In this document: piece by piece, positions 7,952 through 27,293 of the stretch
Layout of the letters: each line of letters starts with the position of its first letter
How positions within the stretch are numbered: position 1 is the stretch's first letter
Origin: a virus
Length of the DNA: 32,137 nt
Reading direction: 5' to 3' (one strand)
Virus record (IMG/VR): IMGVR_UViG_3300044858_002526
Coordinates: 1-32,137 of that record
Position numbers and translations under genes: made by a program
The notes under the pieces: model-generated
Database searches by the model: none
The model's input: the letters and a program-made list of their open reading frames with translations, nothing else
Told to the model about the DNA's origin: nothing

Positions 7952-9022
7952 TTATGCCATTGTTTTTAATTCAAATGATGCTGTTATTCTATCATGACTA
8001 CCTGTGCTTGTTAGAACACCAGTTTGTGGAGTTTTTCTTCCAATTCTTGTACATGACCATTTATTATCTTTTTTCAATCCATATATTAAACTTGGAGAAG
8101 AAGTAAGTATATTAAATCTATATTTATTTTTTTTATAATATTCGCCTATCATATTCAAAAATTTTAAACCAAATCCAGCACCTTGATAGTCAGGCAATAC
8201 AACTAATCTATGTACTTTCTTCATATTTGTAACTTTTGGATGTGGTAAATGTAAAACAGAAAGGAAACCTGCTATATTATCGTTTATTGTAGCAATATAA
8301 ACATTTGCAGCATTGTTGTGTGTGTGACTCAAATAGTGATGCTTTGCAAACATTTTCCATATTGTTTTATCGTTTGTACTGAATATCTCGAATTTGATGT
8401 CTGGTCTATTTTTTTTTTGCCCTTCGCATTTACGAAAGGTCATTGTATCTGTATCAAATACCCAATCAGGTAACAACCAATCTTCAACATCAAAATGACA
8501 AGTTACAGCTATAAACTTTTTTTTAGTTTTTCTGATTGCCTTTTGCATTGCAAATGATCCTATTTGTGCAACATTTCTATCAACTACACTTGTAAATTCA
8601 TCAAATACAAATAACTCTTTATCAGATAATATTGCATTTGCTAAATCAACTCGCATCTTTTGTCCATTACTCAAAACTGAATAAGGTTTTAACCAACTTG
8701 GTGGACTGCTAAATCCTACAGAATTGAATGCTGATGTTATTTGTTCGACAGAACAACTTTCAGGCATATCATCCAATACTGTTTCTTTATTATATTCAAA
8801 ATTTGATATATATGATTCAGGAAATAATTGTTTTGCAATTGTTGTTTTACCTGTTCCACTTTTACCTACTATTAATCCAATTTGCCAATTATCATCAATG
8901 TCAATACTTCCTTTAAATTGTTCAATTATATGTTCACTCTGTAAATCGAATTTACCGATTACCGATGCAACCCTAAATGTTTTTTTAGGCTTTGTTTCTT
9001 TTATAATGTCAAAAGTCGGCAT
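7952..9022 (-). CDS. ABC ATPase fused to GNAT domain (Mom-like candidate)
   Basis: A 356-residue fusion. The N-terminal ABC ATPase carries Walker A GKSGTGKT (53-60), signature LSNGQ (117-121), Walker B FVFDE (138-142), D-loop SVVD (145-148) and H-loop His176. It has no membrane domain and no permease neighbour, so it is not a transporter. The C-terminal half (from about 210) is a GNAT acyltransferase fold with HYLS (229-232), the strand HRLVVLPDY and the cofactor loop QGAGFG (280-285). The start overlaps the ParB-like gene by 22 bp, and terS follows 2 bp later. A role in DNA base modification, like Mu Mom, is inference; an RNA or protein target is possible. Confidence 0.8.
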   Translation of the reverse strand: MPTFDIIKETKPKKTFRVASVIGKFDLQSEHIIEQFKGSIDIDDNWQIGLIVGKSGTGKTTIAKQLFPESYISNFEYNKETVLDDMPESCSVEQITSAFNSVGFSSPPSWLKPYSVLSNGQKMRVDLANAILSDKELFVFDEFTSVVDRNVAQIGSFAMQKAIRKTKKKFIAVTCHFDVEDWLLPDWVFDTDTMTFRKCEGQKKNRPDIKFEIFSTNDKTIWKMFAKHHYLSHTHNNAANVYIATINDNIAGFLSVLHLPHPKVTNMKKVHRLVVLPDYQGAGFGLKFLNMIGEYYKKNKYRFNILTSSPSLIYGLKKDNKWSCTRIGRKTPQTGVLTSTGSHDRITASFELKTMA

Positions 9023-14432: not shown

Positions 14433-14638
14433 GGCTCAATTGTTTTATCTATATTATAATTACTTTCCTCTAAAACATTAATAACTCTAATCATAGAATC
14501 TTCAATCTGTGATCTAATTTCAGAAACATTAAATTTTCTAATTAAATCTGTTTCTTGATCAGGCTTTCTTAACAATTTTATATCAATGTCTGCACAAAGC
14601 AAAGCACATAAATTTCTGATTGTAATTTTATTATTCAT
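14429..14638 (-). CDS. Small unknown helical protein
   Basis: A 69-residue protein (MNNKITIRNLCALLCADIDI...) with two Cys in the first helix and an amphipathic second half (SEIRSQIEDSMIRVINVLEE). It has no membrane segment or known motif. It is joined by 4-bp overlaps to the sigma-like gene upstream and the membrane protein downstream, so it is almost certainly translated with them. Confidence 0.55.
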   Translation of the reverse strand: MNNKITIRNLCALLCADIDIKLLRKPDQETDLIRKFNVSEIRSQIEDSMIRVINVLEESNYNIDKTIEP

Positions 14639-15117
14639 TTCCTAATCAGTTTTTTTAATTCGTTTTTAGTCTGGTTTAAAGTTCTTATTATACTCATGTA
14701 TGGTATGCCTGTCTGTCTGCTTAACTCCTTTGCGTTACATTTAAACTCAAAAGCATAGAGCCTTAATATTTCCTTTTGATACCAATAAAGTCCCTCAATA
14801 TGCTGCATCACATTTTCTGAAATATCAACCTCAACCTCATCAATCTTTTCTATTGGTTGCCATTCTACAAAATCCCTGTACTTTTTAAAGAACTTTTTAT
14901 CTGTTGACTGAACCAGATTCAGCATGATCCTTACCATGTAAAATCTGATCTGTTTTCTTTCATATAACTCAATAACTTTCTGATCTTCAAGTTCAGCCAG
15001 AATCAGAAATACTTCACTTTTCAAATCATCCTGCAACTCTACAGGATGCATTTTCTTAATAGCCTGATTTACCTCCTCGCTATTCCACAGCTCAGTTAAT
15101 ATTCCGTTTTTGTCCAT
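14635..15117 (-). CDS. Sigma-70-like (ECF-type) transcription factor
   Basis: A 160-residue protein. The N-terminal part (DDLKSEVFLILAE, then IRFYMVRIMLNLVQSTDKKFFKKYRD) resembles sigma region 2. The C-terminal helix-turn-helix (CNAKELSRQTGIPYMSIIRTLNQTKNELKKLIRK) resembles region 4 and is preceded by a YWYQKEILRLYAFE helix. Small sigma-like proteins of this size occur in many Bacteroidota phages. It could direct host RNA polymerase to late promoters; the late genes show few consensus housekeeping promoters, which fits. It overlaps the VRR-NUC gene by 22 bp. Confidence 0.7.
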   Translation of the reverse strand: MDKNGILTELWNSEEVNQAIKKMHPVELQDDLKSEVFLILAELEDQKVIELYERKQIRFYMVRIMLNLVQSTDKKFFKKYRDFVEWQPIEKIDEVEVDISENVMQHIEGLYWYQKEILRLYAFEFKCNAKELSRQTGIPYMSIIRTLNQTKNELKKLIRK

Positions 15118-15505: not shown

Positions 15506-16177
15506 TTAGATTAATTTATTGAAATATTCAGCAACTGCCATTCTCCTACAGGCTAACTCCATCTGTTCATCATCTTCTAAAAATTCATTCATTTCTTTTC
15601 TTTCTTTGTGGGATGCATATTGATATTGTTTTCTAATTGCCTCCTCTGTTCTTTTCAAAGTACCTTCAAAGTCAGTAACTATTCCTCTTTTGTGGATAAT
15701 ATTAAAACATTTTAAACCCATAAAAATATGATTCCAATCTTTATGCTTTTTGTAAATATCCAAAGACATCTTCAAAATTTCATCATCATCAATATTTGCA
15801 GGTGCTAATTGTTTTTGTGGTTCAATCTTTTCTTCTAATCTGTATTTATAAGCCCATCTTGCATAACTGGTCATCATTCTGGAAAGATATAATGCTGAAA
15901 AGTTTTGATAGGTTTCAGGATTTTCATCCAATTTATCTTTTATCATCAATTCAAAGGCAAGTTCAAATTCACCTATTGGTAATTGTGCATAATCAACTTT
16001 TACCATTTGACTCATATATTTCATTTCAAATTCAGATGGTAATCTATCCCCCTTAACTCCCAATAGGATCATAGCCTTTGTAAGTATTTCAAGTATTTCT
16101 TGAGTTGAGCAGTCCATAAGTCTGGGAGTTTTCTTCGCTGCCAATAGAATTTTTGATTCGTTCATACCATTGCTCAT
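15506..16177 (-). CDS. Replication-associated helical protein, possible helicase loader
   Basis: A 223-residue, nearly all-helical protein. The N-terminal block KKTPRLMDCSTQEILEILTKAM and the stretch PIGEFELAFELMIKD, then YQNFSALYLSRMMTSYARW, resemble a recurrent protein following the initiator in Bacteroidota phages. It ends with a charged helix pair. Its position directly after the replication initiator-like gene and the lack of any phage helicase suggest loading of the host helicase, but no loader motif proves it. It overlaps the previous gene by 89 bp, or by less if a later start (16165 or 16117) is used. Confidence 0.5.
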   Translation of the reverse strand: MSNGMNESKILLAAKKTPRLMDCSTQEILEILTKAMILLGVKGDRLPSEFEMKYMSQMVKVDYAQLPIGEFELAFELMIKDKLDENPETYQNFSALYLSRMMTSYARWAYKYRLEEKIEPQKQLAPANIDDDEILKMSLDIYKKHKDWNHIFMGLKCFNIIHKRGIVTDFEGTLKRTEEAIRKQYQYASHKERKEMNEFLEDDEQMELACRRMAVAEYFNKLI

Positions 16178-16826
16178 ATTGTTCTTTTTTAGTTTTAGGT
16201 GATTTAAAGTTATTGTTAAAGTTAGAATTATTTATCCAAACAGCTAACATTTTTTGTTTCCAATTTTTTACAGGTTTCCCTTTGGAATCTTTCCAATCAG
16301 CCACATCATAATACTCAAATGCCTTTTTTGCTGCTTCTATTGTACTGCCTTTTTCTAAAAAATAATCTTCAACCTCAGAAATTGATGGCTTTTGTACACA
16401 CTTAGTATTTTGTATTAAATTAGTCTTTTGTAATACATTAGTATTTAGTATATGAGCACTTTCACCGAACTCGGTAATTTCCGAAGTCGGGTTTTCCGAT
16501 TCTCGGTTTTTCTCTATCTCGGCAGGTATATCATAAACAACATGGTTCCAACCTACAAACCTTCCTGTCTTTTGATCATGAACCTTTACAGATAAAATAT
16601 ATCCTTTTTTTTGCAGGTTTTTAAATGACTTGTCAATTGATCCTTTTTTATCAGGTAAACTATTGTATAAATTTTGCTTATATATTACCCAATCTGAAGG
16701 CAATGATAAAAGGTAACTTAATAAACCTTTATCTTCAAGTGACAAATCTTTTGACTTAATCACTTCGTTTGGCAGAGTGGTAAACCTTTCGGTTGTTCTG
16801 CTTTTTACTATTTGTCCTGTATTCAT
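16089..16826 (-). CDS. Replication initiator-like winged-helix protein
   Basis: A 245-residue protein from the ATG at 16826. The N-terminal part (FTTLPNEVIKSKDLSLEDKGLLSYLLSLPSDWVIYKQNLYNSLPDKKGSIDKS, then LQKKGYILS) is the winged-helix of phage replication proteins of the O/DnaD-associated type. The C-terminal half (SEVEDYFLEKGSTIEAAKKAFEYYDVADWKDSKGKPVKNWKQKMLAVW) resembles a DnaD/DnaB2-like tail that contacts DNA or the helicase. An upstream ATG at 16871 would add 15 residues read through a strong hairpin, so I prefer 16826. The gene has its own promoter and a hairpin leader. Confidence 0.7.
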   Translation of the reverse strand: MNTGQIVKSRTTERFTTLPNEVIKSKDLSLEDKGLLSYLLSLPSDWVIYKQNLYNSLPDKKGSIDKSFKNLQKKGYILSVKVHDQKTGRFVGWNHVVYDIPAEIEKNRESENPTSEITEFGESAHILNTNVLQKTNLIQNTKCVQKPSISEVEDYFLEKGSTIEAAKKAFEYYDVADWKDSKGKPVKNWKQKMLAVWINNSNFNNNFKSPKTKKEQYEQWYERIKNSIGSEENSQTYGLLNSRNT

Positions 16827-16828
16827 AA

Positions 16829-16875
16829 ATAAAAAACCCAACGGGATTGGAAGTGGCTTTTCCGCACCCATTGGG
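16829..16875 (-). promoter_or_regulatory. Hairpin leader / attenuator before replication gene
   Basis: On the minus strand CCCAATGGG (16875-16867) pairs over nine bases with CCCGTTGGG (16845-16837) and is followed by TTTTTTAT running straight into the ATG at 16826. It has the form of a terminator, yet the coding start is three bases beyond. It may attenuate transcription or hide the ribosome site. Confidence 0.6.
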
Positions 16876-16920: not shown

Positions 16921-16950
16921 CAAAGATAATAAAATTAAATTAATTGCAAC
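16921..16950 (-). promoter_or_regulatory. Promoter P2 for replication gene
   Basis: On the minus strand GTTG (16950-16947), 18 bases, then TATCTTTG (16928-16921), matching TTG-N18-TAnnTTTG. It overlaps the 3' end of the DnaA-IV gene (stop at 16935). The -7 is followed by TAAAAA, as at P4 and P5. The start codon is about 95 bases downstream, leaving a long leader with two hairpins. Confidence 0.65.
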
Positions 16951-17360
16951 TTTGAATCTATTAATATTTTTGCCTGACTGAATTTTTCAGCAAACAATTC
17001 ATCAACATCAACTAAATTTTTGCAGGTCTTAATACTATGCAGGACAGTTGTATGATGTGCTCCTGTACTAACGTGCTCTCCTATATCCTTTAAAGTTAAG
17101 TCTGTATATTGCCTTAAAAAGTAAACTGCACAATGTCTTGCATCCTTTACTCTTTGCCTTCTGGATGCTTCCTGACAATTAGTATTAAACACCTCATTAA
17201 CAATTGATATAATTTCATCTGCAGGTCTACGTTTATGCCTTGCAACTCTTTCAACTACAGGGAAATTGTCCAATAATTTTTCAAGTTTGCTAATCATTTC
17301 ATAATGATCTTTGATGAGAGTTTGTATAGATAATCTCGTAATATTTTGTTCTTGTTTCAA
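16935..17360 (-). CDS. Free-standing DnaA domain IV-like protein
   Basis: A 141-residue protein. After a helical N-terminus, residues about 46-120 follow the DnaA DNA-binding domain closely: ADEIISIVNEVFNTN, QRVKDARHCAVYFLRQY, TLKDIGEHV, and the signature STGAHHTTVLHSIKTC, corresponding to GRDHTTVLHA in DnaA. It has no AAA+ ATPase domain, so it cannot melt DNA by itself. It can bind DnaA-box-like sites, perhaps to start phage replication, block host initiation or regulate transcription. It is coupled to the SSB-tailed gene (4-bp overlap). Confidence 0.88.
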   Translation of the reverse strand: MKQEQNITRLSIQTLIKDHYEMISKLEKLLDNFPVVERVARHKRRPADEIISIVNEVFNTNCQEASRRQRVKDARHCAVYFLRQYTDLTLKDIGEHVSTGAHHTTVLHSIKTCKNLVDVDELFAEKFSQAKILIDSKLQLI

Positions 17361-17587
17361 AATGGTAAATTTTCGGTTTCTGAATTAGGTTTATCTTCTC
17401 TTATTTTGTCATATATGACATAAAACTCATTTCCATATTTGTCCAATTTTTTAGATAAAAAACAAACATACTTTTTATATGATTCTGCATCTTTAATGGC
17501 AAGTTCAAGGTAATCACCGTTTTTGCCTTTCTTTTTTGTTAGGTAGATTCCTTTAGCGAAGTTCGGTTTCTGTGAGTTCTGTTCCAT
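17357..17587 (-). CDS. Small protein with SSB-like C-terminal tip
   Basis: A 76-residue protein. A compact beta-rich part (AKGIYLTKKKGKNGDYLELAIKD, NEFYVIYDKI) could form a small OB-like fold. The tail EDKPNSETENLPF ends with the hydrophobic pair after acidic residues that bacterial SSB uses (usually DDDIPF) to recruit partners. It may bind single-stranded DNA, or mimic the SSB tip to contact host repair and replication enzymes. It lies between small genes in the replication block. Confidence 0.55.
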   Translation of the reverse strand: MEQNSQKPNFAKGIYLTKKKGKNGDYLELAIKDAESYKKYVCFLSKKLDKYGNEFYVIYDKIREDKPNSETENLPF

Positions 17588-17753
17588 TTGTTATTTGATT
17601 TAAAAATTTAGCTTCCTTTGTTGGGTTCATATCCCAATTGTCTAATGTAGTCATCAATTCCTGAAATCTATCTTCTGAATACCAGATATGATGATAGATT
17701 TTAGCAACAATGACCATCCTTTCCTGTGGGGGGAGTTTTTGATAAGAGTTCAT
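17553..17753 (-). CDS. Small unknown helical protein
   Basis: A 66-residue protein (MNSYQKLPPQERMVIVAKIY...) with two Trp (HHIWYSEDRF, LDNWDMNP) and a C-terminal helix. It is not hydrophobic enough for a membrane span. It overlaps the next gene by 35 bp and the previous by 4 bp. No family recognised. Confidence 0.55.
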   Translation of the reverse strand: MNSYQKLPPQERMVIVAKIYHHIWYSEDRFQELMTTLDNWDMNPTKEAKFLNQITNGTELTETELR

Positions 17754-18115
17754 AATATTTGCATTTTTGCTTTTTCAAAACTTATTAAAGTACGAATAGC
17801 ATCAATTTGGTGAACAGCAGCAGAACAAGCCTTTTCAAAACCTGTCTTTAATCTATTCCAATCCTTTGCTTTTGCTTTGATCATCATGTTAAAAGTTGAT
17901 GCTGAGTATTTATCCATTATTTCAAGATTTACTTTGCATTCAATATCAACCACCTCATCTATTTTGTATTGGCATTCAGTCATATATTGCCCTGCCCTTG
18001 TCATTAATACAGATAGATTGTTTAGTCTTTCAATTAATTGCTCAGGATCTTGAGGCAATGGTTGTTCAAGATACTTCAACATTCTCTGATAATGATCATT
18101 GTACTTGTCTAACAT
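17750..18115 (-). CDS. Helical protein accompanying the annealing protein
   Basis: A 121-residue, all-helical protein (MLDKYNDHYQRMLKYLEQPL...; DIECKVNLEIMDKYSAS; SAAVHQIDAIRTLISFEKAK). Long amphipathic helices suggest a helical bundle or coiled coil that works as an oligomer. It directly follows the annealing protein with a 20-bp overlap, so it may be its partner in recombination. I do not recognise a defined family. Confidence 0.6.
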   Translation of the reverse strand: MLDKYNDHYQRMLKYLEQPLPQDPEQLIERLNNLSVLMTRAGQYMTECQYKIDEVVDIECKVNLEIMDKYSASTFNMMIKAKAKDWNRLKTGFEKACSAAVHQIDAIRTLISFEKAKMQIL

Positions 18116-18689
18116 TCTTAATTGTTTTTTTAATGTCTGTTTGTGAATAGTTTAAGCCCATGCTGATCCGGTCTTTGTCCTGAATCTGATTCATTTGCAA
18201 GTTCGATAATGCTTTGTCATACTCAGCCTGTGTTTTGATGGTGCTGATCCTAACTGCCAATTGTTCCTTTTGCCTTTCCTCGTATGTTGTATTTTCAAGT
18301 AAGGTTAACAGGTAAAGTCTGCCTTCCTCATCTATTTCCTCAACTCTATTAACTGCCTTCTGGACTTCATCAGCAGATGCAATGCCTGTATCAATTCCGA
18401 TATTTGCCATTGCACAGGCTCTGCCAACTGCACTCGTTTCAGCATTTTCCAGAGCAGATGTGTGATTAACTTCTCTGTAGTTGTCAGACTCTATTTCCTG
18501 AGCGAGTCCTGTGTAAATGTAATCTCTTTCTGCCCCATGAATTGTCAACTTTGCTTTTACTACCCACATTTTTCTTTCTGGATAATACTGATAATCGCTT
18601 TCAATGTTGTACTCATAATTGTCATTTAGCCATTTGATTCTTTCGTGGACAGGGACATAGTCCTTTCCTTTGATTTTTACTGTGTTCAT
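18096..18689 (-). CDS. Erf/Rad52-type single-strand annealing protein candidate
   Basis: 197 residues from the ATG at 18689 (MNTVKIKGKDYVPVHERIKW). The core includes the strands KMWVVKAKLTIHG and DYIYTGLAQEIE, then EVNHTSALENAETSAVGRACAMANIGID and ASADEVQKAV. The ETSAVGRA block with a following ASADEV is widespread in phage recombination-type proteins related to Erf/Sak. Such proteins anneal single strands in phage recombination. The next genes (helical protein, SSB-tailed protein, DnaA-IV) fit a replication/recombination block. An in-frame TTG-like start at 18737 would overlap the previous gene and is less likely. Confidence 0.6.
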   Translation of the reverse strand: MNTVKIKGKDYVPVHERIKWLNDNYEYNIESDYQYYPERKMWVVKAKLTIHGAERDYIYTGLAQEIESDNYREVNHTSALENAETSAVGRACAMANIGIDTGIASADEVQKAVNRVEEIDEEGRLYLLTLLENTTYEERQKEQLAVRISTIKTQAEYDKALSNLQMNQIQDKDRISMGLNYSQTDIKKTIKNVRQVQ

Positions 18690-18690
18690 T

Positions 18691-18900
18691 TTATGTTGTT
18701 TTAAGTGATTTATTAATTCCCCAAAAAGCACCTGCAAAAAATATGTCTGTTATATCCAATGAATTTAATTCATGTTCAAATATAGCAACAACAGTATTTT
18801 CTGTTTGCACTTCAAATGTAACTTTATCTTTAAATTGATTCTTGATGTATTCCTGTGCGGAAGTTGGGATGTAAAGTCTATTGGTTTTCATATATGCCAT
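18691..18900 (-). CDS. Small unknown early protein
   Basis: A 69-residue protein (MAYMKTNRLYIPTSAQEYIK...) with a basic N-terminus, a beta-rich centre (VTFEVQTENTVVAIFEHEL) and a partly hydrophobic end (FFAGAFWGINKSL). It is the second gene after promoter P1, overlapping the first by 23 bp and ending 1 bp before the annealing protein. Function unknown; a role in early host takeover is possible. Confidence 0.55.
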   Translation of the reverse strand: MAYMKTNRLYIPTSAQEYIKNQFKDKVTFEVQTENTVVAIFEHELNSLDITDIFFAGAFWGINKSLKTT

Positions 18901-19154: not shown

Positions 19155-19185
19155 CAAATATAAACCTTATTTTACAATTAACAAA
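19155..19185 (-). promoter_or_regulatory. Promoter P1, main early promoter
   Basis: On the minus strand TTTG (19185-19182), exactly 19 bases, then TATATTTG (19162-19155). This is a perfect match to the Bacteroidota consensus TTTG-N19-TAnnTTTG. It drives the long early gene block starting at 19135. Confidence 0.85.
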
Positions 19186-19243: not shown

Positions 19244-19253
19244 TCGTGATCCG

Positions 19254-19286
19254 TTTATCGCTCATTATCGGCTCATTTATCGCTCA
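19254..19286. repeat. Three tandem 11-bp iteron-like repeats
   Basis: TTTATCGCTCA (19254-19264), TTATCGGCTCA (19265-19275) and TTTATCGCTCA (19276-19286) follow each other without spacing. The first and third are identical; the second is the same with one T lost and one G gained. Each holds TTATC, the start of the DnaA box TTATCCACA. They are outside any credible gene and just upstream of P1. Origin or operator function is inference. Confidence 0.65.
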
Positions 19287-19290
19287 GAAA

Positions 19291-19306
19291 GTGCCATTTA
19301 TGACAC
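19291..19306. promoter_or_regulatory. Imperfect palindrome, possible operator
   Basis: GTGCCAT-TT-ATGACAC has 7-base arms with one mismatch, 5 bp beside the iterons. The size and symmetry suit a dimeric regulator such as the small XRE protein, but there is no second copy to support it. Confidence 0.4.
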
Positions 19307-19345
19307 ATTATGTAGTAAGGAAATCAGGGCAAAGCTGACATATGC

Positions 19346-25484: not shown

Positions 25485-27293
25485 TTATTTCCTTGTTACA
25501 ATGTTAGAAACCCATTCATGTCTGCAAGATGGTGAATGACTGCCATTAGGCTGAGTCCACCAACCGCCCCTTCTATCCCAAACAGAATATCCTAATCTCG
25601 CACTCATTTGTTCAATCTCACTTCTGGAATACATTTTATTTGCATCCATTAAATATTTACAGAACTCTCTTGAAGGGTGAGTAGCTGAATCTCTTTGACC
25701 TGTAGGTATCCCCTTTTTCCATTCATATGAATATCTGATCAAAAACTCAGTTGTTACAGGTTTTATTTTTTGAACTATTTCAGATATTGGAGCAGTTAAT
25801 TTTCTTTCAATGATTATGTTAGAATCAATACCCTCTCCAATTACAGTTTCCTTAACATCCAAAAAACCTTTATCAACCAAATTATTTATGACTCTTTTTA
25901 TTGAGCCAACATCTTCCCCTAATGTTTCAGCAATAACCTCTGGAGTTATTCTTTTATCTTTAACGATCAAATCCAAAACATTAGATTGTAGTTGAGTTAC
26001 ATCAGCAAATAATTCAACATCACCAAATAAATGCTTAGTTTTCCATACATTGAATTGATCTTTATCTTCACCAAATTCAAAGAATATTTTAAATTCATCA
26101 GCAAAATTTTGAACAGATTGCTGAATAGGTTGCTCAGGTTTTTGATATTTGCTCATATCAATACCAAGTTTCTCAATGATCCACTCTTTTGGAGCTATCT
26201 GCAAAATTGTTGACTCGCTGAACTCAATTCCAACAGGCTCAGTAGCCAATAGTTTCAAATCTTCTACATATCCTGCATAACCTGCCAACATATTGAATGC
26301 AGACTCCAAAAACATTTGCTTACCATTAACGTAAGTATTTTTGAAAATCTCATACCCATCCCTCATTTCAGTCCTTGTCCCCAACTTACCTGCAACCGCA
26401 ATACCAAATATTGATGGAGTTGTAACCTGATGACCGCTAAATATGTTAGTTTGAATCAATTCATCAACCCTACCGAAGTCTTCCTTTGTTAAATCAGACT
26501 GCCCTAAATCATCAACTATTGGTTTTCTGGATGCATCGTTTACAAATGCCAACATATATTTGATACCATCAGCACCTGTATAAGTATTCTTAAACTTATT
26601 GTGTACGACTCTCTGCTCCTCAGGTGAAGGCTCACCATTAGGAAGGGTAATTAACTTACTCGCAGAGAATCCTGTTTTAGCATTGCCTAAAACGTGCTTA
26701 GAAACCTCAATATCGGACTCAATATAGTTAAGAGCACCAAAGTATGATGGCAGGGAATAAACACCGCCATTAGGTCTGTATTCTTTTAAATATAGGATTT
26801 GTTTTCCCTGTGGGTTTTTAGGATTGAATGCAGGATAAACCTCATATTTTTCCTTACTATCTTTCCAATCTTCCTTATACCAGAACTGAGTATTATCTTT
26901 ATTTGTTCTAAATTTAGTATAATCACAATGCCAAATCTCAGAAACCTTTCCGATTCCCCAGATTACCTCTAAGTATGCACCTCCAAAAAGCTCCATATCT
27001 AAGCTAACCTTTCTGGAAAGATCATCCAGACTTTCACTCCTATTTGGGCTATCAATGAAAGGTTGACTTTGCTCACTACCTACCCATCCGTTACCGATAA
27101 TATAGTGAACTTTATTTCTTACAATTGCATTGTGTTTTGCAGATTTATTGAATAGCTCAACCAAATATGTTGGATAATCATTTCTATCCCCATACTGCAT
27201 ATAACCTTCGCCTTTCTTTTCTCTGTACTCAGGTTGTTTAGCCTCTGCAAATTGTACTAAAACGTAGTTTCCTATGTTCTGATTACTTATCAT
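25485..27293 (-). CDS. Portal protein with winged-helix insert and MuF-like C-terminus
   Basis: A 602-residue protein. The first two thirds form a portal core (HNAIVRNKVHYIIGNGW; LDMELFGGAYLEVIW; KHVLGNAKTGFSASKLITLP; FGIAVAGKLGTRTEMRDGYE). It is followed by a predicted winged helix (NVLDLIVKDKRITPEVIAET, KRVINNLVDKGFLDV), and then a C-terminal block (DSATHPSREFCKYLMDANKM; WDRRGGWWTQPNG; SCRHEWVSNIV) like the MuF/SPP1 gp7 minor head protein. The portal forms the DNA channel; MuF parts enter the capsid. It is adjacent to the adaptor and overlaps the preceding gene by 4 bp. Confidence 0.8.
   Translation of the reverse strand: MISNQNIGNYVLVQFAEAKQPEYREKKGEGYMQYGDRNDYPTYLVELFNKSAKHNAIVRNKVHYIIGNGWVGSEQSQPFIDSPNRSESLDDLSRKVSLDMELFGGAYLEVIWGIGKVSEIWHCDYTKFRTNKDNTQFWYKEDWKDSKEKYEVYPAFNPKNPQGKQILYLKEYRPNGGVYSLPSYFGALNYIESDIEVSKHVLGNAKTGFSASKLITLPNGEPSPEEQRVVHNKFKNTYTGADGIKYMLAFVNDASRKPIVDDLGQSDLTKEDFGRVDELIQTNIFSGHQVTTPSIFGIAVAGKLGTRTEMRDGYEIFKNTYVNGKQMFLESAFNMLAGYAGYVEDLKLLATEPVGIEFSESTILQIAPKEWIIEKLGIDMSKYQKPEQPIQQSVQNFADEFKIFFEFGEDKDQFNVWKTKHLFGDVELFADVTQLQSNVLDLIVKDKRITPEVIAETLGEDVGSIKRVINNLVDKGFLDVKETVIGEGIDSNIIIERKLTAPISEIVQKIKPVTTEFLIRYSYEWKKGIPTGQRDSATHPSREFCKYLMDANKMYSRSEIEQMSARLGYSVWDRRGGWWTQPNGSHSPSCRHEWVSNIVTRK

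What the first reader, a model, noticed from the sequence alone, without database searches (positions are those of the whole stretch)
16935..17360. Stand-alone DnaA DNA-binding domain in a phage without helicase or polymerase
The protein keeps the DnaA domain IV signature (HHTTVLHSI) but has no AAA+ domain. Together with the winged-helix initiator and a loader candidate it suggests recruitment of the host replisome, or seizure of host DnaA boxes to stop chromosome replication. The repeats at 19254-19286 are possible targets.
Basis: partly seen in the sequence, partly recalled or inferred. Interest (0 to 1): 0.5.

Follow-up and report, generated by a model that had tools for sequence, protein, structure and literature searches.

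The report
Stand-alone DnaA-type DNA-binding phage protein
This phage carries only the DNA-gripping end of the bacterial replication starter DnaA, with one key contact residue changed, inside its own replication-start operon; such proteins are common in phages, but I found no report of a test of what they do.

Summary
ORF 16935-17360(-) is a 141-aa protein with one DnaA domain IV (PF08299, 48.9 bits; DnaA-IV fold) and no AAA+ part. The genome is probably complete (125-bp end overlap). No helicase or polymerase was found in 37 ORFs scanned, including every one of 200 aa or more.

Sixteen IMG/VR relatives were found through this gene. An initiator gene follows it in all 17 genomes, but in four N-domain forms. 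The two main forms carry different internal repeats, so the phage origin probably lies there; DnaA-IV does not follow the swap.

The signature is altered. Base-contact Asp433 is His in 17 of 17 family members but Asp in 33 of 33 full-length DnaAs. DnaA boxes are not enriched. Seizure of host boxes is therefore unlikely; a private-site accessory initiator or regulator is likelier. Stand-alone DnaA-IV is widespread in phages (41 further clusters; cultured examples), so the kind is known but apparently untested.

The repeats at 19254-19286 are not DnaA-IV-specific. They overlap a 29-bp palindrome like those before bacterial DUF4172-Fic genes. It recurs in phages mostly lacking DnaA-IV (74 of 80 contigs) and Fic (38 of 39 tested). 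This is the most novel lead.

The parts
16935..17360 (-). stand-alone DnaA domain IV protein, 141 aa; HTH domain = residues 48-112; predicted N-terminal helix 9-31
16089..16871 (-). initiator candidate: HTH_36 winged-helix N-domain (Pfam match under its cut-off, clear PHROG matches to phage initiators and a DnaD-like loader); the N-domain is exchanged in 7 of 17 genomes
16459..16507 (-). origin-like repeats (ACCGAG/TTCGG words) inside the initiator gene
16389..16449 (-). AT-rich repeats (ACTAAT...ATTACAAAA), possible unwinding stretch next to the repeats
15506..16177 (-). helicase-loader candidate by position only; best match a PHROG of unknown function (E 4e-5)
17357..17587 (-). small conserved gene of the same operon, unknown function
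17553..17753 (-). small conserved gene of the same operon, unknown function
17750..18115 (-). small conserved gene of the same operon, unknown function
18096..18737 (-). largest gene of the operon upstream of DnaA-IV; matches PHROGs of unknown function; ERF-like annealing protein is my reading from recall
19155..19185 (-). Bacteroidota-type promoter (TTTG-N19-TATATTTG) of the replication operon, such a promoter matched in 7 of 12 loci; the promoter consensus is recalled, not looked up
19247..19275 (-). 29-bp imperfect palindrome TGAGCCGA...CGGATCA overlapping the repeats; arms match at 8 of 11 positions

Best explanation
The protein is a phage-encoded, sequence-specific double-strand DNA binder made of one DnaA domain IV plus an N-terminal helix. 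It most likely acts as an accessory factor in starting phage DNA replication. It would bind private sites on phage DNA and help the initiator (whose gene contains the probable origin) and the loader candidate place the host's helicase and polymerase. Shown here: domain, fold, lack of AAA+, conserved operon place, origin-like repeats that change with the initiator form, changed D433, no enrichment of DnaA boxes. Inferred: that it binds DNA, that its sites differ from the DnaA box, and that it acts in initiation.
For: Domain and fold. In the window and all 16 relatives an initiator gene lies within about 0.6 kb downstream; the relatives were found through DnaA-IV itself, so only the order, not the presence, is evidence. 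The initiator gene carries internal repeats that change with its N-domain: in 12 of 17 genomes compared, TCGG/CCGA words number 8-13 per gene in 7 of 7 of the main HTH_36 form and 0-1 in 5 of 5 of the DUF1376 form; CATATG numbers 0 and 4-6. No helicase or polymerase found in 37 window ORFs. In 41 clusters of other stand-alone DnaA-IVs, 146 of 157 listed neighbour ORFs were scanned: DnaB-like helicase 7, primase/helicase 6-7, overlapping sets. Among 140 ORFs more than 2.5 kb away no such family is in the 25 shown. Of seven cultured-phage genes three stand beside or one gene from an annotated replication protein or a DUF1376 protein: Tenacibaculum phage Gundel_1, Polaribacter phage P12002L, Rhizobium phage RHph_N28_2. 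For Gundel and Harreka the authors report, for replication, only 'a DNA replication protein' (PMC8776804, passages).
Against: The gene does not vary with initiator or repeat type: it is 98-99% identical between the window and the DUF1376-type L003 and L017, so no dedicated partnership is visible. No binding site was identified. The distant-ORF control has shorter proteins (mean 157 against 207 aa) and shares one ORF with the near set; only the top 25 families are shown, and initiator matches occur in it too (phrog_428 in 2, phrog_6251 in 1). In four of the seven cultured phages the annotated neighbours are hypothetical proteins, a methyltransferase or the like. The HTH alone would equally suit a transcription regulator.
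Confidence: 0.45

Rival explanations
1. Transcription regulator: the DnaA-type HTH has been reused to control phage promoters, as in GafA, the activator of the Rhodobacter gene transfer agent, whose N-terminal DNA-binding part resembles DnaA domain IV.
For: GafA precedent, and small DnaA-like genes beside short gafA in Hyphomicrobiales (PMC9638019, passages). A weak sigma-70/ECF-like protein is encoded 1.8 kb away in the same direction (14635-15117, E 0.0026, 17.4 bits under a cut-off of 42.9). The protein does not co-vary with the initiator form.
Against: No sigma-like or omega-binding part in the protein itself. Neighbourhood with replication genes in other phages. The only strongly confined intergenic motif is shared with phage contigs without DnaA-IV.
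Confidence: 0.27
2. Host takeover: the protein occupies host DnaA boxes and stops chromosome initiation, freeing the replisome for the phage.
For: Most contact residues are kept (R399, H434, T435, H439 by the list in PMC7561715; R407 and T436 as contacts are recalled). Another prophage protein is reported to bind DnaA (YfdR, PMC4776307, search listing only).
Against: D433, a base-specific contact (PMC7561715, passages), is His in the whole family but Asp in 33 of 33 full-length DnaAs; R432 is also lost. DnaA boxes are not enriched in the phage: 4 against 7.2 expected in the window, 23 against 31 in 13 loci, so a shared specificity has no visible use on the phage genome.
Confidence: 0.15
3. One reading: the protein binds the 11-bp repeats at 19254-19286 and autoregulates its own operon.
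For: The repeats share TTATC with the DnaA box, lie next to the operon promoter, and the core TGAGCCGA occurs 15 times in 2,240 bp of this region in 11 loci and 0 times in 169,093 bp elsewhere (the word was chosen from this region, and two pairs of loci are near-identical). 6 of 80 contigs with the palindrome, but 0 of 38 control contigs, have a DnaA-IV.
Against: 74 of 80 contigs with the palindrome show no DnaA-IV. None of 75 loci (up to about 10 kb each) with other stand-alone DnaA-IVs has it. In bacteria it stands before DUF4172-Fic genes.
Confidence: 0.08

Closest known systems
Stand-alone 'DnaA' genes of cultured phages (Polaribacter P12002L, Tenacibaculum Gundel_1, Olleya Harreka_1, Pelagibacter HTVC034P, Rhizobium RHph_N28_2, Microcystis Mae-JY35, Bradyrhizobium ppBjS10J-1)
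   Same: single DnaA domain IV in a 141-191 aa protein, three of seven beside or one gene from annotated replication or DUF1376 genes
   Different: too distant to be found with the window protein at E 0.01; D433 is kept in all seven, His here
DnaA, chromosomal replication initiator (full length)
   Same: domain IV fold and R399/R407/H434/T436/H439
   Different: no AAA+ domain III and nothing resembling domain I; D433 is His; loop changes
GafA of Rhodobacter capsulatus
   Same: DnaA-like HTH outside DnaA, in a phage-like element (passages)
   Different: GafA has a central part and a C-terminal sigma-like part; this protein has neither
Lambda-type replication modules (initiator with repeats inside its own gene, followed by a loader)
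   Same: repeats and AT-rich stretch inside the initiator gene; lambda layout recalled
   Different: an extra DnaA-IV gene precedes the initiator; loader not recognisable by sequence
Operators of DUF4172-Fic-winged-helix proteins (CccR/SoFic/CbFic2 type), for the repeats only
   Same: the 29-bp palindrome TGAGCCGAWTA-N7-TAWTCGGCTCA of the phage family is the one in front of some such genes in Bacteroidota; CccR represses its own promoter through inverted repeats (PMC9755527, passages)
   Different: no Fic gene in the phage; CccR's own repeats differ in sequence and spacing

Membership tests
Bac_DnaA_C (PF08299) domain | profile score above the curated cut-off | tested here: met
   48.9 bits, cut-off 31.5
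DnaA initiator | AAA+ ATPase domain III | tested here: not met
   141 aa, no AAA+ match; the first 47 residues have no match above a cut-off
DnaA initiator | base-contact residues R399, P423, D433, H434, T435, H439 | tested here: not met
   R, K, H, H, T, H in the five family members aligned; P423 is Lys also in 26 of 33 full-length DnaAs, D433 is Asp in 33 of 33
DnaA initiator | binds TTWTNCACA boxes | not testable with these tools
   needs purified protein; boxes not enriched in the phage
Stand-alone phage DnaA-IV proteins | short phage ORF with DnaA-IV only | tested here: met
   141-144 aa in the window and all 16 relatives; 75 distant loci have ORFs of 95-225 aa, two of them cut by a contig end
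Stand-alone phage DnaA-IV proteins | neighbourhood of replication genes | tested here: met
   initiator downstream; other clusters; not met in four of seven cultured phages
GafA-type activator | DnaA-like HTH joined to a sigma-like C-terminal part | tested here: not met
   protein ends about 30 residues after the HTH
Lambda-type initiator module | origin-like repeats inside the initiator gene | tested here: met
   that they are an origin is inferred
Lambda-type initiator module | helicase loader downstream | tested here: inconclusive
   15506-16177 matches only PHROGs of unknown function
DUF4172-Fic regulatory unit | Fic gene downstream of the palindrome | tested here: not met
   no Fic in the window record

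The most novel reading that the evidence does not exclude
The repeats beside the replication promoter are not replication-protein sites but copies of the operator that bacterial DUF4172-Fic-winged-helix proteins (AMPylating autorepressors) use in front of their own genes. Unrelated phages (contigs of 28-65% G+C), nearly all without a Fic gene, carry this operator, often in intergenic control regions. They would thus put a promoter under the control of a host AMPylating regulator, or titrate it, much as some Alphaproteobacteria phages use host CtrA sites, proposed to time lysis.
Probability: 0.3. Interest if true: 0.72.

Novelty: new member of a known kind. Interest (0 to 1): 0.42.

Why it matters
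Stand-alone DnaA-IV proteins are widespread in phages and are labelled 'DnaA', yet I found no test of their function. The recurrent D433-to-His change (this family and 11 of 41 other clusters) is a concrete hint that phages evolved private binding sites, which one binding assay could settle. The exchange of the initiator's N-domain together with its repeats points to the phage origin before any experiment. The side result, a Fic-type operator carried by many phages without Fic, would link host AMPylation regulators to phage gene control.

Tried and rejected
Stand-alone relatives in the phage collection by the window protein alone: 10 records matched. The three that I read (L031, L032, L033) are full-length chromosomal dnaA genes, so contaminating host DNA; the other seven were not read. 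Of 7 plasmid records with a match, four are annotated as dnaA at that place and three have no annotation there. No relative in bacterial genomes by two peptide patterns: 15 stretches matched, none confirmed. A DnaA-box cluster: not found. The TTATC similarity of the repeats to the DnaA box looked attractive and was given up. The FastTree holds the family together (0.99) apart from full-length DnaAs, but deep branches are weak, so the number of captures stays open. A literature search with motif letters found 188 papers; the 40 listed looked unrelated by title. No functional study of a stand-alone phage DnaA-IV appeared, in an open-access library only. My first count had only two initiator forms, from 12 of 17 genomes; the check found two more.

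Full report
What is there. The minus-strand ORF 16935-17360 starts at a TTG that overlaps the stop of the preceding gene. It encodes 141 residues. Residues 48-112 match Pfam Bac_DnaA_C at 48.9 bits, above the curated cut-off of 31.5; in the Protein Data Bank by sequence only DnaA chains match. The AlphaFold2 model (10-sequence alignment, mean pLDDT 76, five models between 42 and 76) matches DnaA-DBD structures first (3pvp, 1j1v). There is no AAA+ domain. The first and last 125 bases of the window agree with one mismatch, so the 32-kb genome is probably complete. Pfam scans of 37 window ORFs, every one of 200 residues or more included, found no helicase or polymerase, only an exonuclease, a VRR-NUC nuclease, an HNH nuclease, ParB-like and other genes. 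Host and habitat are not told by any search; the promoter type and the related phages point to Bacteroidota.

The family. Sixteen IMG/VR loci carry close relatives, 72-99% identical, all 141-144 residues long. Two peptide patterns in genome contigs gave none. In the 12 gene tables that were fully visible the gene sits between the same small genes and an initiator gene (the tables of four loci were cut). The motif HHTT is present in all 17 sequences.

The changed contact. I aligned five family members, 41 representatives of other stand-alone clusters, seven cultured-phage proteins and 33 full-length DnaAs (30 from unnamed Bacteroidota genomes, three). R407, H434 and T436 are kept in all 86. D433 is Asp in 33 of 33 full-length DnaAs, 7 of 7 cultured-phage proteins and 30 of 41 clusters, but His in 5 of 5 family members and in 11 of 41 clusters; R432 is also lost in the family. 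D433 is listed among residues of base-specific recognition (PMC7561715, passages). So the scaffold and the minor-groove arginine R399 are kept while part of the major-groove reading is altered. Canonical DnaA boxes are not enriched: 4 against 7.2 expected in the window and 23 against 31 in 13 loci.

How common it is. Five of these are the family itself; the other 75 all lie in ORFs of 95-225 residues, two of them cut by a contig end, and fall into 41 clusters. By contrast every match printed for 198 Bacteroidota genomes lies in a frame of 466 residues or more (the list was cut). Cultured phages have such genes too, in six of seven annotated as DnaA or replication initiation (the Bradyrhizobium one is 'hypothetical protein'). 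The kind is therefore known to annotators (P12002 phages: PMC4615864, passages). I found no functional test.

Neighbourhood. For the 41 clusters I scanned 146 of 157 listed neighbour ORFs (up to three downstream, one upstream): DnaB-like helicase in 7, primase/helicase in 6-7 (overlapping sets), O-like or other initiators in 2-3 each. Among 140 ORFs more than 2.5 kb away these helicase and primase families are not in the 25 shown; initiator families are (phrog_428 in 2, phrog_6251 in 1). The distant ORFs are shorter (mean 157 against 207 residues) and one ORF is in both sets, so the contrast is indicative only.

Where the origin probably is. The initiator gene downstream exists in four forms over 17 genomes: the window's HTH_36 form in 10, DUF1376 in 5, another HTH_36 domain in L008 and Lin1244_N in L011, where a GIY-YIG-like gene (MUG113/T5orf172) stands in between. 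The C-terminal part is shared in all forms read except L006. In 12 of the 17 I compared repeats: the main HTH_36 form carries 8-13 TCGG/CCGA words and no CATATG (7 of 7); the DUF1376 form carries 4-6 CATATG and 0-1 TCGG/CCGA words (5 of 5); elsewhere in the loci these run at 2.0 and 0.36 per kb. Both repeat blocks are followed by an AT-rich stretch. Repeats that change with the DNA-binding domain next to them are what an origin inside the initiator gene predicts. DnaA-IV stays 98-99% identical across the two forms, so it is not tied to one origin. The repeats of L008 and L011 were not examined.

In 11 loci the word TGAGCCGA occurs 15 times in 2,240 bp of this intergenic region and never in 169,093 bp elsewhere (the word was picked from the region). 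In 11 of 12 loci there is a 29-bp palindrome of the form TGAGCCGAWTA-N7-TAWTCGGCTCA with arms matching at 8-10 of 11 positions; in the window it is imperfect, at 19247-19275. Whole-contig searches found a DnaA-IV in 6 of these 80 contigs, one of them this family and two of them under the curated cut-off, and in 0 of the 38 control contigs. Many contigs are fragments, but 35 of the 80 exceed 30 kb. None of the 75 other stand-alone loci, mostly up to 10 kb long, contains it. So it is not a DnaA-IV-specific site, though 6 of 80 against 0 of 38 leaves a weak association open.

What the palindrome resembles. Among 198 Bacteroidota genomes four have it, and in three of these it stands immediately before a DUF4172-Fic gene; in the fourth it does not. 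A protein search with one of these Fic proteins in 395 genomes gave 39 genomes with matches at E 1e-60, and 30 loci were fetched. The palindrome stands before the five closest homologues (51% identity or more) and before none of the 24 others in which the frame was found; one locus gave no frame. Three of the five are the genes that led to the search, so two of two are independent. Further homologues have variants of it, including TGAGCGATAA (L445), the other word of the window's repeats, which occurs twice in the region and nowhere else in the window. CccR, a protein of this architecture, represses its own promoter through inverted repeats, of other sequence and spacing (PMC9755527, passages; PMC10628234, passages). 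Fic genes were absent from 38 of 39 palindrome contigs searched and from the window and five relatives (41 of the 80 contigs were not searched for Fic). A use of host-regulator sites by phages has a precedent in CtrA; that paper found no such uneven spread for DnaA sites (PMC9437464, passages).

Verdict. The most likely role is an accessory initiator, or a regulator, acting at private sites in a host-replisome-dependent phage. Seizure of host DnaA boxes is possible but disfavoured. The repeats point elsewhere, to a Fic-type operator.

Noticed in passing
19247-19286 and the same region in relatives; L141-L220: A 29-bp palindrome (TGAGCCGAWTA-N7-TAWTCGGCTCA) recurs in many unrelated phage contigs, often intergenic and near genes that I read from recall as NinG, Q-type regulators and lysis genes, and in front of bacterial DUF4172-Fic genes.
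   Followed up: partly
16089-16871 in the window; L003, L004, L006, L008, L011, L013, L017: The initiator gene exchanges its DNA-binding N-domain (two HTH_36 types, DUF1376, Lin1244_N), in the two main forms together with its internal repeats, while the rest of the operon stays.
   Followed up: partly
L011:2103-2639: A gene with MUG113/T5orf172 (GIY-YIG-like) matches is inserted between DnaA-IV and the initiator gene in one relative.
   Followed up: no
14635-15117: A 160-aa protein with a weak sigma-70/ECF match (E 0.0026, under the cut-off): a possible transcription factor.
   Followed up: no
19286-19308 and relatives: A second conserved element, roughly GTGTCATAAA-N-GCACTTT, an inverted repeat upstream of the palindrome, also in L145.
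   Followed up: no
L014, intergenic region about 2.1 kb upstream of its DnaA-IV gene: The letters look like the 3' end of a tRNA (GGGTTCGAGTCCCACACCGCC) in the control region of one relative; read by eye only.
   Followed up: no
7952-9022: One protein joins an ABC-type ATPase part and a GNAT acetyltransferase part; it matches a PHROG of unknown function along nearly its whole length.
   Followed up: no
25485-27293: The portal protein has weak winged-helix (MarR/HTH_24) matches, under their cut-offs, in its C-terminal third.
   Followed up: no
phage collection records MT835859, MT835965, OR844989: Records labelled phage contain full-length chromosomal dnaA; the neighbourhood was read in two, with dnaN- and recF-like genes (named from recall) beside dnaA in one.
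   Followed up: yes
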